Source of the DNA: Ochrobactrum sp. Marseille-Q0166
GTDB lineage: Bacteria > Pseudomonadota > Alphaproteobacteria > Rhizobiales > Rhizobiaceae
DNA: 64,000 bases
Direction of reading: 5' to 3'
Assembly: GCF_014397025.1 (NCBI RefSeq)
Contig: NZ_JACJUO010000003.1
Span: 62,001-126,000 of the forward strand
Part shown: piece after piece, positions 44,791-51,942 of the stretch
Layout: each line of letters begins with the position of its first letter
How positions within the stretch are numbered: the stretch's first letter is position 1
Made by a program: the position numbers and the translations under genes
The notes under the pieces: generated by a model
What the model saw: only the letters and a program-made list of their open reading frames with translations
The model's database searches: none
Told to the model about the DNA's origin: nothing

Positions 44791-46014
44791 ATGGACTACG
44801 ATACGACCTTCAAAAAGCTGCTCTCGGATATGAAAGATGATGGCAGGTATAGAACTTTCGCCCAGTTGGAGCGGATAGCGGGTGAATTCCCAACCGCGTT
44901 ATGGCATCGGCCCGATGGTAAAGAGCAGCGCGTAACAGTTTGGTGCAGCAATGACTATCTTGGTATGGGACAGCATTCAGATGTACTAGCAGCAATGCGC
45001 GGTGCCATCGATTCATTTGGAGCTGGCACCGGGGGTACACGGAACATCTCTGGTACAAATCGCCAACATGTCGAGCTCGAAGCAGAAATAGCGGATCTGC
45101 ACGGTAAACAGGCAGCTCTCCTCTTCACGTCAGGCTGGGTTTCCAATCTAGCCGCACTTGGCACCCTCGGGCGTATGCTTCCAAACTGCGCAATCTTCTC
45201 AGACGCCCAGAATCACAATTCTATGATTGAAGGTATTCGCCGATCGGGTGCGGATAAGTTCATATTTCGACACAACGATGTGGGTCACCTTGACGAGCTG
45301 CTGAGCAGCGTTGACCCCGAACGTCCCAAGATCATCGCGTTCGAAAGCGTCTATAGTATGGACGGCGATATTGCACCGATCAGGGCCATTTGCGACGTCG
45401 CAGACAAGCATGGAGCGCTGACCTATCTGGATGAGGTGCATGCCGTTGGCCTTTATGGCGAACGTGGTGGTGGTATTGCCGAACGAGAGGGGCTTGCGCA
45501 TCGTATCACGGTAATTGAGGGGACGCTTGCTAAAGCTTTCGGTGTCATGGGCGGCTACGTTGCGGGATCGGCACTGCTGATCGATGTCATCCGCAGCATG
45601 GCAGACAGCTTTATCTTCACGACTTCTCTCTCTCCTCATGTTGCTGCGGGAGCCCTTGCGGCTATCCGGCACGTAAAAGCCAGTCCTCAAGACCGGCAGC
45701 TCCAGGCCGCCAACGTAGCCCGCTTCAAATCAATGCTCCTTGATGCTGGGATACCTGTTCTCGACACGCCGAGCCATATCCTGCCCGTAATCGTCGGAGA
45801 TGCACATCTTTGTCGCGTCCTCAGTGAGCGGCTGCTGATGGAACATGCAATCTATGTCCAGCCCATAAATTACCCGACGGTCGCACGCGGACAAGAGCGG
45901 CTGCGTCTCACGCCAACACCGTTTCATACCGACGCTCATATGCGTTCATTTATCGAGGCCTTCTTGAAAGTGGCCAATCAACTGGGCTGGTTCGAGGCAA
46001 GTCAGGCGGCTTAA
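44791..46014 (+). CDS. hemA: 5-Aminolevulinate synthase
   Basis: A 407-residue PLP enzyme that makes 5-aminolevulinate from glycine and succinyl-CoA, the first step of heme synthesis in alphaproteobacteria. Substrate and cofactor segments: VWCSNDYLGMGQHSDVLAAM, GAGTGGTRNISGTNRQHVEL, YLDEVHAVGLYGERGGGIAE, and GTLAKAFGVMGGYVAG with the PLP lysine at residue 248, the same number as in Rhodobacter. The start at 44791 fits family N-termini and has AAGGA six bases upstream; a GTG at 44767 is less likely. It lies among accessory genes, so it is probably a second copy besides a housekeeping one. The operator upstream, shared with the MocR gene, suggests it supplies heme when the bd oxidase at 49362 is made. 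Confidence 0.93.
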   Translation: MDYDTTFKKLLSDMKDDGRYRTFAQLERIAGEFPTALWHRPDGKEQRVTVWCSNDYLGMGQHSDVLAAMRGAIDSFGAGTGGTRNISGTNRQHVELEAEIADLHGKQAALLFTSGWVSNLAALGTLGRMLPNCAIFSDAQNHNSMIEGIRRSGADKFIFRHNDVGHLDELLSSVDPERPKIIAFESVYSMDGDIAPIRAICDVADKHGALTYLDEVHAVGLYGERGGGIAEREGLAHRITVIEGTLAKAFGVMGGYVAGSALLIDVIRSMADSFIFTTSLSPHVAAGALAAIRHVKASPQDRQLQAANVARFKSMLLDAGIPVLDTPSHILPVIVGDAHLCRVLSERLLMEHAIYVQPINYPTVARGQERLRLTPTPFHTDAHMRSFIEAFLKVANQLGWFEASQAA

Positions 46015-46327
46015 TTCGTGAAATTTGAGGATAGTTTAATGCGAGAGGTATCTCTTAATATTGTGCCGTAGAGCCTCCAAAAGAGCGAATATCGCTACGA
46101 AAGCTTTCCGGTCATGTTCACAGCCCCTAACTAAAATCAGAAGCAATTAAGCCGAACTCTCACGAGACCATTGTCTCCCATTGTGAGAGTGAGGGTCTAT
46201 TTGCGAATGTTACTAAACGATTATTGCAGCGCTATCCTTACACGCCTTCCAATGGCTTTCGTCTATTGGCTCCCAAAAATCTGGCGTCAGGATACTGCTC
46301 AATGAATAAAAGAAAGGAAAGATTAGA
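46015..46327. other. Spacer downstream of hemA
   Basis: I see no gene, repeat or clear terminator here apart from an imperfect repeat of the CTCTCAC/GTGAGAG type at about 46157-46191 (CTCTCACGAGACCATTGTCT to TTGTGAGAGTGAG), which can pair as a stem and may end hemA transcription. Confidence 0.35.
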
Positions 46328-46480
46328 ATGGAATGGTTCCCTATAATAGCCGGTGGGTTTAAGCTTGTCGTTCTAGGTGTTGCTATGTTTTTTGCGATCA
46401 AGTGGCATTATGATAAAGATAAAGAGGAGAAGGAGAGAAGGAGAGCAGAAGTGGAGAAGGACTTTTCAATTAATGAGTAG
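46328..46480 (+). CDS. Small membrane protein with charged coil tail
   Basis: A 50-residue frame with a good ribosome site (AAAGGAAAG, 46313-46321, just before the ATG at 46328). Residues 4-25 form one membrane helix (FPIIAGGFKLVVLGVAMFFA) and residues 28-48 are a highly charged, Lys/Glu/Arg-rich segment that should form a cytoplasmic helix or coiled coil. I do not recognise a family. It lies between hemA and mocR, in a region otherwise without genes, and could be a small partner of a membrane complex, though nothing shows this directly. Base composition is more A+T-rich than the neighbours. Confidence 0.5.
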   Translation: MEWFPIIAGGFKLVVLGVAMFFAIKWHYDKDKEEKERRRAEVEKDFSINE

Positions 46481-46925
46481 ACGAGCCAACATAAAATTAC
46501 TTGGGTTTTCTTATTTTGGGATTCCTTCATGAGAGTTCACATCGCCGCTTCTGCAGTCAGGCTCAGGACTCATTTGTTTAATGGAAATGGCACCTGAAAT
46601 GTCCAGATATGCAAGGAAAGACGCGAATAACGGCCTCCCCATTTAGCGTCTTGACGTAGCAGACAGCCTGCTCACTTCGGTGTCCGAAGCGCGTGGCCGA
46701 TCAGCCCGGCTGCTTTGGCAAAAAAGTCTCGAAAGTGACCGCATCTCCTTCGCCCTTTTTCCTCGTATCCAAACGGATGGTCTCACACCATTTCCGTCAA
46801 AGTAACGGGCCGCGAGCCTAAAGCCACGTAATAGAATCTTTGGTGTGCGAGGGGCCGATATAAAAATGTGCTCCCTCTTTATCAGAGCACTGCGCGCGAA
46901 CTGTCTCCCACTTCCATAATAAATC
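46481..46925. other. Spacer upstream of the MocR promoter
   Basis: No gene is supported. A minus-strand frame (46643-46960) overlaps the operator and has no recognisable domain. The region has mixed composition and may be the residue of an old insertion. Confidence 0.35.
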
Positions 46926-50777: not shown

Positions 50778-50791
50778 AGAGGAGAAAAAAC

Positions 50792-51799
50792 ATGGGCATT
50801 GATCTTCCTCTTATATGGGCGCTTATCATCGGCTTCGGCCTTATGATGTATGTCATCATGGATGGCTTCGACCTTGGGATCGGCATCCTGTTTCCCTTTG
50901 TGCGTAGCCGTGACGACCGCGACGCTATGGTCAATAGTGTTGCACCGGTCTGGGACGGAAACGAGACTTGGCTCGTGCTGGGCGGAGCTGCCTTGCTGGG
51001 TGCCTTCCCGTTGGCCTATGCCGTTATCCTTAGCGCCCTATATTTTCCCCTTCTTCTCATGTTGGCGGGTCTGATCTGGCGAGGCGTGGCGTTCGAGTTT
51101 CGCTTCAAGGCGGATGAGGGACACAAGGCATTCTGGGATAAAGCCTTCATGTGGGGTTCCTACATTGCAACGTTTTCCCAAGGCCTTGCGCTCGGCGCAT
51201 TTATCGACGGTTTCGAAGTCCGGGACGGTACGTATGTTGGCGGGATGTTTGACTGGTTGACACCGTTTAGTCTGTTCACGGGTGTCGGCATGTTGCTCGC
51301 CTATGCGTTGCTCGGAGCGACTTGGCTGGTGATGAAAACGGAGGGCGATCTTCAGCAGCGTATGCGACAACTTGGCCGCCCAATCACCGTAGCAGTATTG
51401 GTGACGATTGTGATCGTCAGCCTCTGGACGCCATATGCCAACCCTGACATTGCTGCCCGATGGTTTGCATTGCCCAACCTGTTGTTCTTTATGCCCGTCC
51501 CCATACTGGTTGTCTTAGCCACATGGATGCTTCTGAAGAACTTGGCAGGCAAAAGCCATGCTGCACCATTCCTGCTTTCGCTTTTACTATTATTCTTAGG
51601 TTATTCGGGACTGGCAATCAGCTTGTGGCCGAATATCGTCCCACCGGCTATCTCAATATGGGATGCTGCTTCGCCGCCTCAAAGCCTGGGTTTCACACTC
51701 GTCGGAGCGTTGTTTATCATTCCGTTCATCCTCGCCTACACTGCATGGTCTTACTATGTGTTCCGAGGGAAGGTTAAGGTTGGGGAAGGATATCACTAA
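50792..51799 (+). CDS. cioB: Cytochrome bd-type quinol oxidase subunit II (CioB-like)
   Basis: A 335-residue inner-membrane subunit with about eight to nine helices. It begins with the family pattern DLPLIWALIIGFGLMMYVIM, then DGFDLGIGILFPFV and WDGNETWLVLGGAALLGAFP. The ATG at 50792 with AGAGGAG upstream is preferred to the TTG at 50774 that would overlap the cioA stop. It forms a heterodimer with CioA. Its stop overlaps the ATG of a 47-codon gene for a DUF2474 protein. Confidence 0.92.
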   Translation: MGIDLPLIWALIIGFGLMMYVIMDGFDLGIGILFPFVRSRDDRDAMVNSVAPVWDGNETWLVLGGAALLGAFPLAYAVILSALYFPLLLMLAGLIWRGVAFEFRFKADEGHKAFWDKAFMWGSYIATFSQGLALGAFIDGFEVRDGTYVGGMFDWLTPFSLFTGVGMLLAYALLGATWLVMKTEGDLQQRMRQLGRPITVAVLVTIVIVSLWTPYANPDIAARWFALPNLLFFMPVPILVVLATWMLLKNLAGKSHAAPFLLSLLLLFLGYSGLAISLWPNIVPPAISIWDAASPPQSLGFTLVGALFIIPFILAYTAWSYYVFRGKVKVGEGYH

Positions 51800-51942
51800 T
51801 GGCCGACGCTCCTCACCATCAGAAACTATGGCTGAGACGTTTTGGTTGGATGGTTCTAATCTGGACTGGCAGTGTAATGGCACTGGCGATCGTGGCACTT
51901 CTCTTTCGCTTCCTGATGAACCTGGCCGGTCTCACCGTTTGA
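51799..51942 (+). CDS. DUF2474 small membrane protein, probable bd oxidase accessory subunit
   Basis: A 47-residue protein that starts on the last base of the cioB stop codon (TAATG). The sequence LRRFGWMVLIWTGSVMALAI followed by VALLFRFLMNLAGLTV has one membrane helix (~17-40) and matches the DUF2474 pattern found behind cioAB genes. In E. coli the small CydX protein in the same operon position stabilises cytochrome bd; DUF2474 is thought to play a comparable role in Cio-type enzymes. The assignment rests on sequence pattern and strict gene position. Confidence 0.8.
   Translation: MADAPHHQKLWLRRFGWMVLIWTGSVMALAIVALLFRFLMNLAGLTV

What the first reader, a model, noticed from the sequence alone, without database searches (positions are those of the whole stretch)
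44791..51942. Possible nitrile/cyanide tolerance regulon: ALAS, MocR, nitrilase, CioAB and DUF2474
The nitrilase gene overlaps cioA by 13 bp, so a nitrile-hydrolysing enzyme and a cyanide-insensitive-type oxidase are made from one mRNA under a MocR regulator whose operator also lies before a second 5-aminolevulinate synthase. The logic would be: detoxify or use the nitrile, keep respiring with an oxidase that resists cyanide, and raise heme supply for that oxidase. Nitrilase clusters and cio genes are known separately in cyanotrophic pseudomonads; this compact union with ALAS and MocR is not one I know as described.
Basis: partly seen in the sequence, partly recalled or inferred. Interest (0 to 1): 0.8.

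Follow-up and report, generated by a model that had tools for sequence, protein, structure and literature searches.

The report
Bacterial cyanide-survival gene set
A small mobile set of genes, switched by one vitamin-B6-type regulator, probably lets a soil bacterium survive cyanide by keeping respiration going, clearing a cyanide by-product and supplying a spare copy of a cyanide-vulnerable heme-making enzyme; related sets, in varying make-up, recur in other Alphaproteobacteria.

Summary
In detail: ALAS, MocR, nitrilase, CioA, CioB and DUF2474 lie where stated, and nitrilase and cioA overlap by 13 bp. The shared operator (CATACA-N11/12-TGTATG-N9-CATACA) occurs exactly twice in the 4.44 Mb genome, before ALAS and mocR. 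The set is not unique: of 80 related nitrilase loci 22 have a MocR gene and 8 have contiguous MocR-nit-cioA-cioB. In 14 relative genomes or plasmids (about 73 Mb) 20 distinct operator sites were found: 18 before mocR or ALAS, one at cyoA, one inside a cluster beside a metF remnant. The nitrilase is NIT4-like, so its likely substrate is 3-cyanoalanine, a cyanide by-product, not an outside nitrile. Other loci add serC, argD, hisC-type, dapA, metF-like, sulfite/nitrite reductase or other oxidase genes: kinds seen in the cyanide-induced cio cluster of Pseudomonas CECT5344, for which its authors reported no homologous cluster (PMC11049912). Best reading: a modular, mobile, MocR-controlled cyanide-tolerance regulon in which ALAS is a spare copy of a cyanide-vulnerable enzyme. 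Induction and substrates are inferred. New variant of a known kind.

The parts
44688..44726 (+). MocR operator before ALAS: CATACA-N12-TGTATG-N9-CATACA, 64 bases before the ATG
   Evidence: one of two exact genome-wide matches; similar sites before 6 of 15 other cluster-clade ALAS rows
44791..46014 (+). second 5-aminolevulinate synthase (ALAS), 407 aa; lysine of the PLP motif at residue 248 (motif recalled)
   Evidence: TIGR01821 663.4 bits, cut-off 338.55; 60% identical to the other ALAS of the genome; in a 16-row clade of cluster ALAS, support 100/99
46328..46480 (+). 50-aa small ORF between ALAS and mocR; membership in the regulon uncertain
   Evidence: 79% over 29 aa in O. chromiisoli at the same place; no hit at E 0.1 in the other loci held
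46926..46963 (+). MocR operator before mocR: CATACA-N11-TGTATG-N9-CATACA, 15 bases before the ATG
   Evidence: a site upstream of mocR at 15 of 15 loci with a close MocR (0 to 2 mismatches)
46979..48355 (+). MocR-type regulator (GntR DNA-binding domain plus aminotransferase-like domain), PLP lysine aligned at residue 297
   Evidence: PF00392 and PF00155; EhuR model 386.3 bits, under its cut-off 480; lysine aligned with an aminotransferase, position
48373..49374 (+). NIT4-type nitrilase, 333 aa, predicted 3-cyanoalanine hydrolase; catalytic-type Glu, Lys and Cys motifs present (motifs recalled)
   Evidence: PF00795; best solved relative plant NIT4 6i00, 364.8 bits; motif positions
49362..50777 (+). 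cioA, cytochrome bd subunit I of CIO type (short Q-loop)
   Evidence: PF01654; 63 residues of the E. coli bd-I and bd-II chains have no counterpart near query residues 312-318
50792..51799 (+). cioB, cytochrome bd subunit II
   Evidence: PF02322
51799..51942 (+). DUF2474 small membrane protein, CydX-like subunit of CIO oxidases
   Evidence: PF10617 63.9 bits; DUF2474 as CydX-like partner of CIO oxidases in PMC5322542 passages
43661..44391 (-). IS6-family transposase remnant, left edge of the island
   Evidence: PF13610 30.9 bits, cut-off 27; NF033587 103.6 bits, under the cut-off 125; 43661-44340 has a 684-bp inverted copy, 72% identical, at 8730-9407
52236..52400 (+). IS6-type remnant, right edge of the island
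   Evidence: DNA similar to 33915-33993 and 8730-8872

Best explanation
A horizontally mobile, modular cyanide-tolerance regulon. Cyanide (or a cyanide-PLP adduct, as its authors hypothesise for MpaR of P. aeruginosa) acts on the PLP-binding MocR. MocR releases or activates two promoters that carry CATACA-N-TGTATG-N-CATACA. One drives mocR-nit-cioA-cioB-DUF2474: CioAB keeps respiration going when heme-copper oxidases are blocked, and the NIT4-type nitrilase clears 3-cyanoalanine formed from cyanide. The other drives a second ALAS, a spare copy of a PLP enzyme that cyanide would block and that also supplies heme. Shown: genes, operator pair and its specificity, recurrence, ALAS clade, NIT4 affinity, CIO type. 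Inferred: cyanide as signal, sign of regulation, substrate of the nitrilase, cyanide tolerance of ALAS and of the oxidase, one mRNA.
For: Operator: 2 exact hits in the own genome, both in the set, control 0. In 14 relative genomes or plasmids 24 matches at up to 2 mismatches make 20 distinct sites: 14 before a mocR, 4 before ALAS, 1 at the 5' end of cyoA in a cyoABCD-ALAS-SIR gene run, 1 between a metF remnant and a small hypothetical gene of the L108 cluster; control 0 (gene order). One ALAS with a site is on a contig apart from the nitrilase (R. hainanense, L113). Local control: 0 hits at up to 2 mismatches in 55 MocR-less loci (718 kb) and 0 in 10 shuffles of the close group. NIT4 affinity. 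Gene kinds shared with the CECT5344 cio cluster; there most cio-cluster proteins rise with cyanide residue and a MocR mutant is reported to make them constitutively (unpublished data cited in PMC8567248, passages). The MocR-type MpaR answers cyanide and controls an oxidase subunit (PMC10790758 passages).
Against: No expression, growth or enzyme data for any of these loci. Relatives of the nitrilase (59-69% identical) at 55 of 80 loci have no MocR or CioA in the DNA held, so the enzyme alone does not mean cyanide tolerance. The MocR scores below the cut-off of its nearest named family, a regulator of ectoine use, so another ligand is possible. The P. aeruginosa motif ATCTGAT was not found in nine intergenic regions next to the more distant MocR genes. 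In CECT5344 one cio-cluster protein, HisC, was induced by 3-cyanoalanine. The CECT5344 proteins could not be fetched, so the likeness is by gene kind only. ALAS of 64% or more identity is absent from 8 of 21 genomes holding a related set, two of which gave no ALAS match at all. CioA copies elsewhere in carriers without cioA beside nit have no site at up to 3 mismatches in the DNA held, save one 3-mismatch site (L144-L154).
Confidence: 0.72

Rival explanations
1. One reading: ALAS is there to raise heme supply for the bd oxidase, and the nitrilase uses an outside nitrile.
For: Cytochrome bd carries three hemes (recalled). ALAS of at least 64% identity is present in 9 of the 11 searched genomes whose nitrilase is beside cioA (L001, L002, L010, L011, L013, L016, L019, L022, L026 yes; L003, L005 no; L006 and L020 not searched), against 4 of 8 alphaproteobacterial genomes without cioA beside it (L008, L012, L014, L015 yes; L004, L007, L009, L023 no).
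Against: ALAS stays in the set where no CioA, CyoB or CcoN was found in the locus (L008, L014, L109), though the L008 genome has a 61% CioA elsewhere. At other loci the set includes SerC, ArgD, HisC-type or DapA genes, which heme supply does not explain. The nitrilase is NIT4-like.
Confidence: 0.3
2. A nitrogen-scavenging regulon: MocR senses an amino-acid-like nitrile such as 3-cyanoalanine and the nitrilase frees ammonia; the oxidase is for low oxygen or nitric oxide stress.
For: MocR relatives often sense amino-acid-like compounds; CIO oxidases also serve under other stresses (both recalled).
Against: In CECT5344 CioAB and Nit4 are not induced by 3-cyanoalanine but rise with cyanide residue (PMC8567248 passages). 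Spare serC, argD and ALAS are not explained.
Confidence: 0.13
3. Loose aggregation of accessory genes around IS elements, with no shared function.
For: IS6 remnants at both edges; ALAS is far more diverged from O. chromiisoli (72% DNA identity) than nit (95%), so parts have different histories.
Against: The close-MocR set with its operator recurs in eight families by the origins printed (loci L001-L013), nit and cioA overlap at 13 of 13 loci, and even an unlinked ALAS carries the site.
Confidence: 0.04

Closest known systems
cio gene cluster of Pseudomonas pseudoalcaligenes (oleovorans) CECT5344, BN5_1899-BN5_1912
   Same: MocR-type regulator, CioAB, a Nit4 nitrilase assigned to 3-cyanoalanine; and, at related loci, sulfite/nitrite reductase, SerC, HisC-type and ArgD aminotransferases, DapA and MetF-like genes
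   Different: Here mocR is co-directional with nit and cioAB, nit overlaps cioA, a second ALAS is in the regulon and DUF2474 follows cioB; the 64-kb window has no hit at E 1e-5 for the SerC, ArgD, HisC-type, DapA, MetF-like or SIR queries (cysM and maeB not searched). Its authors reported no homologous cluster in databases (PMC11049912 passage).
MpaR-ccoN4 cyanide-responsive cluster of P. aeruginosa
   Same: A MocR-type regulator, predicted to bind PLP, next to a terminal oxidase gene and near nirA, answering cyanide. L021 here has MocR, SIR, nitrilase and cbb3-type genes.
   Different: cbb3 subunit in place of CioAB; no nitrilase in the paper's text (0 occurrences); palindrome ATCTGAT in place of the CATACA/TGTATG triplet.
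nit1C cyanide-assimilation cluster (NitC) of pseudomonads
   Same: Nitrilase in a cyanide context
   Different: The radical-SAM, acetyltransferase and AIR-synthase-like partners listed are not among the six genes here; the nitrilase here is NIT4-like.
CIO-type cytochrome bd with DUF2474 (subtype C of PMC5322542)
   Same: Short Q-loop CioA, CioB and appended DUF2474
   Different: Linked to a nitrilase and MocR; that paper's main text has no hit for nitrilase, MocR or aminolevulinate.

Membership tests
NIT4-type nitrilase | closest sequence relative among solved nitrilases is plant NIT4 | tested here: met
   6i00 364.8 bits, next 3wuy 187.9
NIT4-type nitrilase | hydrolysis or hydration of 3-cyanoalanine | not testable with these tools
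   needs enzyme assay
CIO-type cytochrome bd | short Q-loop in subunit I | tested here: met
   alignments to E. coli bd-II and bd-I skip 63 chain residues near query residues 312-318
CIO-type cytochrome bd | respiration resistant to cyanide | not testable with these tools
   needs membranes or mutants
5-aminolevulinate synthase | scores over the curated equivalog cut-off | tested here: met
   TIGR01821 663.4 bits, cut-off 338.55
MocR/GntR regulator | GntR DNA-binding domain fused to aminotransferase-like domain, PLP lysine kept | tested here: met
EhuR ectoine regulator | score over the curated cut-off (480 bits) | tested here: not met
   386.3 bits
CECT5344-type cio cluster | mocR, cioA, cioB and a nit4-type nitrilase together | tested here: met
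   window, L001 and others; orthology to the CECT5344 proteins not tested
CECT5344-type cio cluster | same locus carries the amino-acid and sulfite-reductase genes (cysI, serC, hisC, argD, dapA, metF) | tested here: not met
   no hit at E 1e-5 in the whole window for queries of these kinds taken from relatives; several are present at L012, L014, L108
CECT5344-type cio cluster | induced by cyanide, repressed by MocR | not testable with these tools
   needs expression data
nit1C cluster | nitrilase NitC with radical-SAM, acetyltransferase and AIR-synthase-like genes | tested here: not met
   the six genes scanned are other families

The most novel reading that the evidence does not exclude
Alphaproteobacteria share a mobile 'cyanide-proof spare parts' regulon: a MocR that reads cyanide through its PLP cofactor switches in a cyanide-tolerant oxidase (bd, bo3 or cbb3 by lineage), a NIT4 nitrilase that removes 3-cyanoalanine, and tolerant copies of the enzymes most open to cyanide attack at PLP, Schiff-base lysine or siroheme (ALAS, SerC, ArgD, HisC-type, DapA, sulfite/nitrite reductase, MetF-like). 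The second ALAS would then be a cyanide-tolerant isoenzyme rather than a heme booster.
Probability: 0.42. Interest if true: 0.75.

Novelty: new variant of a known kind. Interest (0 to 1): 0.6.

Why it matters
It turns a cluster reported as private to one Pseudomonas strain into a recurring regulon with a precise operator, names ALAS as a member, and makes a sharp question testable: does a bacterium survive cyanide by swapping in a second set of cyanide-tolerant PLP and siroheme enzymes, under a regulator whose own PLP is the cyanide sensor? It would also give operator-based tools for cyanide sensing and for finding cyanide-tolerant enzyme copies.

Tried and rejected
Outside-nitrile catabolism as the main role: disfavoured by NIT4 affinity and the company the genes keep. 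Chance adjacency: disfavoured by recurrence, the nit-cioA overlap at 13 of 13 loci and operator specificity. The MpaR palindrome ATCTGAT as operator of the more distant MocR genes: not found in nine intergenic regions; in the six of these compared by 7-letter words TATGGAT recurs in 6 and TTGTATG in 5, not tested for chance. A prevalence search gave little: 2 of 397 order genomes, own included, at E 1e-140, and the second (L155, 70%) shows none of the sought neighbours in the 1.5 kb on either side; exact operator in 1 of 385 class genomes, the own. CioA copies elsewhere in carriers without cioA beside nit (L144-L154): no site at up to 2 mismatches, one 3-mismatch site in L145. The nit tree (83 rows) does not make the MocR-linked rows one clade (3 changes among labelled rows); seen unrooted, 53 unlinked rows form one side of a 91/91 branch and of the other 30 rows 25 are linked, 3 are short contigs and 2 unlinked. 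Passages of the 2016 MocR regulon survey: nitrilase, hemA, aminolevulinate and cyanide have 0 occurrences in its main text; its supplement was not read. A first report draft said all loci share the 13-bp overlap, called the ALAS identity groups cleanly split and counted one operator as lying at metF; a recheck (and the earlier tables) corrected these.
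Full report
1. What is there. The nitrilase and cioA overlap by 13 bases, cioB and DUF2474 by one, and 17 bases part mocR from the nitrilase. The set lies on contig C3 (570,981 bases) of a 3-contig genome. IS6-type remnants flank it on both sides.

2. Operator. CATACA-N11/12-TGTATG-N9-CATACA stands before ALAS (44688-44726) and mocR (46926-46963). With free gaps it occurs exactly twice in 4.44 Mb, at these two places; the reversed control gives none. At 15 of 15 loci with a close MocR (69% identity or more: L001-L013 and plasmids L108, L109) a site with 0 to 2 mismatches is upstream of mocR; 4 more sites in these loci lie before ALAS (L001, L008, L109) or, in L108, between a broken metF and a small hypothetical gene. 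There are no such sites in 55 loci without MocR (718 kb; 13 of them under 10 kb), none in 8 loci with a distant MocR (131 kb) and none in 10 shuffles. L017, L018, L020 and L023 were left out of that count; one search shows one-mismatch sites in L020 (before nit) and L023 (before mocR) and none in L017 and L018. A whole-genome search of 12 relatives (the genomes of L001-L013 without L006) and 2 plasmids at spacing (12,9) and up to 2 mismatches gave 24 matches, which I merge to 20 distinct sites: 14 at mocR (one a second MocR copy beside argD and serC, L177), 4 at ALAS, 1 at cyoA of a cyoABCD-ALAS-SIR gene run (L176, 2 mismatches; it overlaps the 5' end of the cyoA frame) and the L108 site named above. 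All 20 lie in or at genes of the set; the control is 0. One of the 14 (genome of L011) had no match; its site has spacing 10. In R. hainanense the ALAS with a site is on another contig than the nitrilase.

3. Recurrence. By tblastn (80 bits or more) MocR is found within the locus at 22 of 80: L001-L016, L019, L021, L022, L023, L026, L030. CioA is found at 13 of 80 (L001, L002, L003, L005, L006, L010, L011, L013, L016, L019, L020, L022, L026; L012 has a 30-residue scrap), and bo3 or cbb3 genes stand in at L015, L021 and L030. Contiguous MocR-nit-cioA-cioB: L001, L002, L003, L005, L006, L010, L011, L013, plus the Agrobacterium sp. T29 plasmid. Of the plasmid hits opened, Martelella pMM593 (L110) shows no MocR. 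L017, L018 and L020 are short contigs without MocR. The remaining 55 loci show neither MocR nor CioA. In the genus, own plus 2 of 34 other genomes carry a close nitrilase (98% and 87%), so the set is sporadic, as horizontal transfer would give.

4. Variable parts. Loci add SerC (L012, L014, L019, L020, L108), ArgD (L012, L014, L108; 48% at L030), an aromatic or HisC-type aminotransferase (L012, L019; broken in L108), a sulfite/nitrite reductase with DUF2849 (L010, L014; homologues at L021, L022), DapA (L026, L030; hits at L012, L022), a MetF-like gene divergent from mocR (L004, L008-L010, L012, L013, L109; broken in L108), cyo genes (L010, L011, L015, L030) and cbb3-type genes (L021). These are gene kinds of the CECT5344 cio cluster as listed in passages of PMC8567248, PMC11049912 and PMC10138600. 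PMC11049912 states that no homologous cioA3B3-nit4 cluster was found in databases, and PMC8567248 that nit4 in such a context had not been described; L108 and the loci above speak against that by gene kind, though I could not fetch the CECT5344 sequences to test orthology. None of the extra kinds is found in the window itself.

5. ALAS. The window copy is 60% identical to the other ALAS of the genome. In 21 genomes behind the loci 19 have ALAS matches at E 1e-100; their identities run from 55 to 83% without a clean gap, so the tree decides. Of 33 ALAS rows (30 of the 42 hits plus window, own second copy and L109) 16 form a clade with 100/99 support: window, L109 and 14 rows from 12 genomes; the Azospirillum pair at 64-65% falls outside it. 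Of these 16, seven have a site just upstream (window, L112, L113, L114, L116, L131, L109); of the 17 others none. Heme supply against spare copy: ALAS of 64% or more goes with cioA beside nit in 9 of 11 genomes and without it in 4 of 8 alphaproteobacterial ones, which mildly favours heme supply; its presence at L008, L014 and L109, with no oxidase query found in the locus, and the company of other PLP enzymes favour the spare copy. I hold the second somewhat more likely.

6. Enzymes. The nitrilase is far closer to plant NIT4 than to any other solved nitrilase. CioA has the short Q-loop; the own genome has two other bd subunit I genes with longer open frames. MocR keeps the lysine that aligns with the PLP lysine of an aminotransferase (the role of that lysine is recalled).

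7. Mechanism. In CECT5344 most cio-cluster proteins rise in cyanide residue, 3-cyanoalanine does not induce them except HisC, and a MocR mutant is said to make them constitutively (unpublished data cited in PMC8567248). MpaR, a MocR type, answers cyanide, and its authors hypothesise a PLP-cyanide adduct as ligand (PMC10790758). By analogy MocR here is the cyanide sensor; MocR is described as a repressor in the first case and MpaR as needed for expression in the second, so the sign here is open.

8. Literature. Listings of seven searches of the open PMC library show no paper on this set in Alphaproteobacteria; I read passages of seven papers only, and most subscription journals are not held. 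PMC6989483 passages mention Sphingobium among genomes with DapA, CioAB and NitC, by presence and not by cluster.

Noticed in passing
44791-46014 against L001: ALAS is only 72% identical in DNA to the O. chromiisoli copy although nit and cioA are 94-95%; dS came back as -1, which I read as saturated; mocR lies between (88%). The left part seems to have another history, yet the operator is perfect.
   Followed up: partly
L008 5372-6271, L010 5542-6486 and others, upstream of mocR: A MetF-like gene divergent from mocR scores near or below the Pfam cut-off (27.8 and 20.1 bits, cut-off 24) and may be a distinct family with its own role.
   Followed up: partly
L010 12095-14209, L014 3132-5138: Sulfite/nitrite reductase hemoproteins carrying an N-terminal DUF2849, next to ALAS.
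   Followed up: no
9445-10842: Another MocR-like protein, 24% identical to the set's MocR, beside an IS6-type remnant at 8730-9407.
   Followed up: no
33915-34301: A further IS6-type remnant similar to those at 8730-9407 and 43661-44340; several window segments seem bounded by such remnants.
   Followed up: no
53279-53680 and 53702-54064: Two adjacent small, apparently exported proteins that look, by eye, like diverged tandem copies of each other.
   Followed up: no
46328-46480: Small 50-aa ORF between ALAS and mocR with a homologue only in O. chromiisoli among the loci held.
   Followed up: partly
L177 109-1485: Second MocR copy (74% identical) in Sinorhizobium sp. 6-70 with a perfect operator, next to argD and serC: a second branch of the regulon.
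   Followed up: partly
L003 8001-9290: In Tropicimonas the nit frame runs on 302 bp into cioA and the protein match stops at residue 308, so its 3' end looks changed.
   Followed up: no
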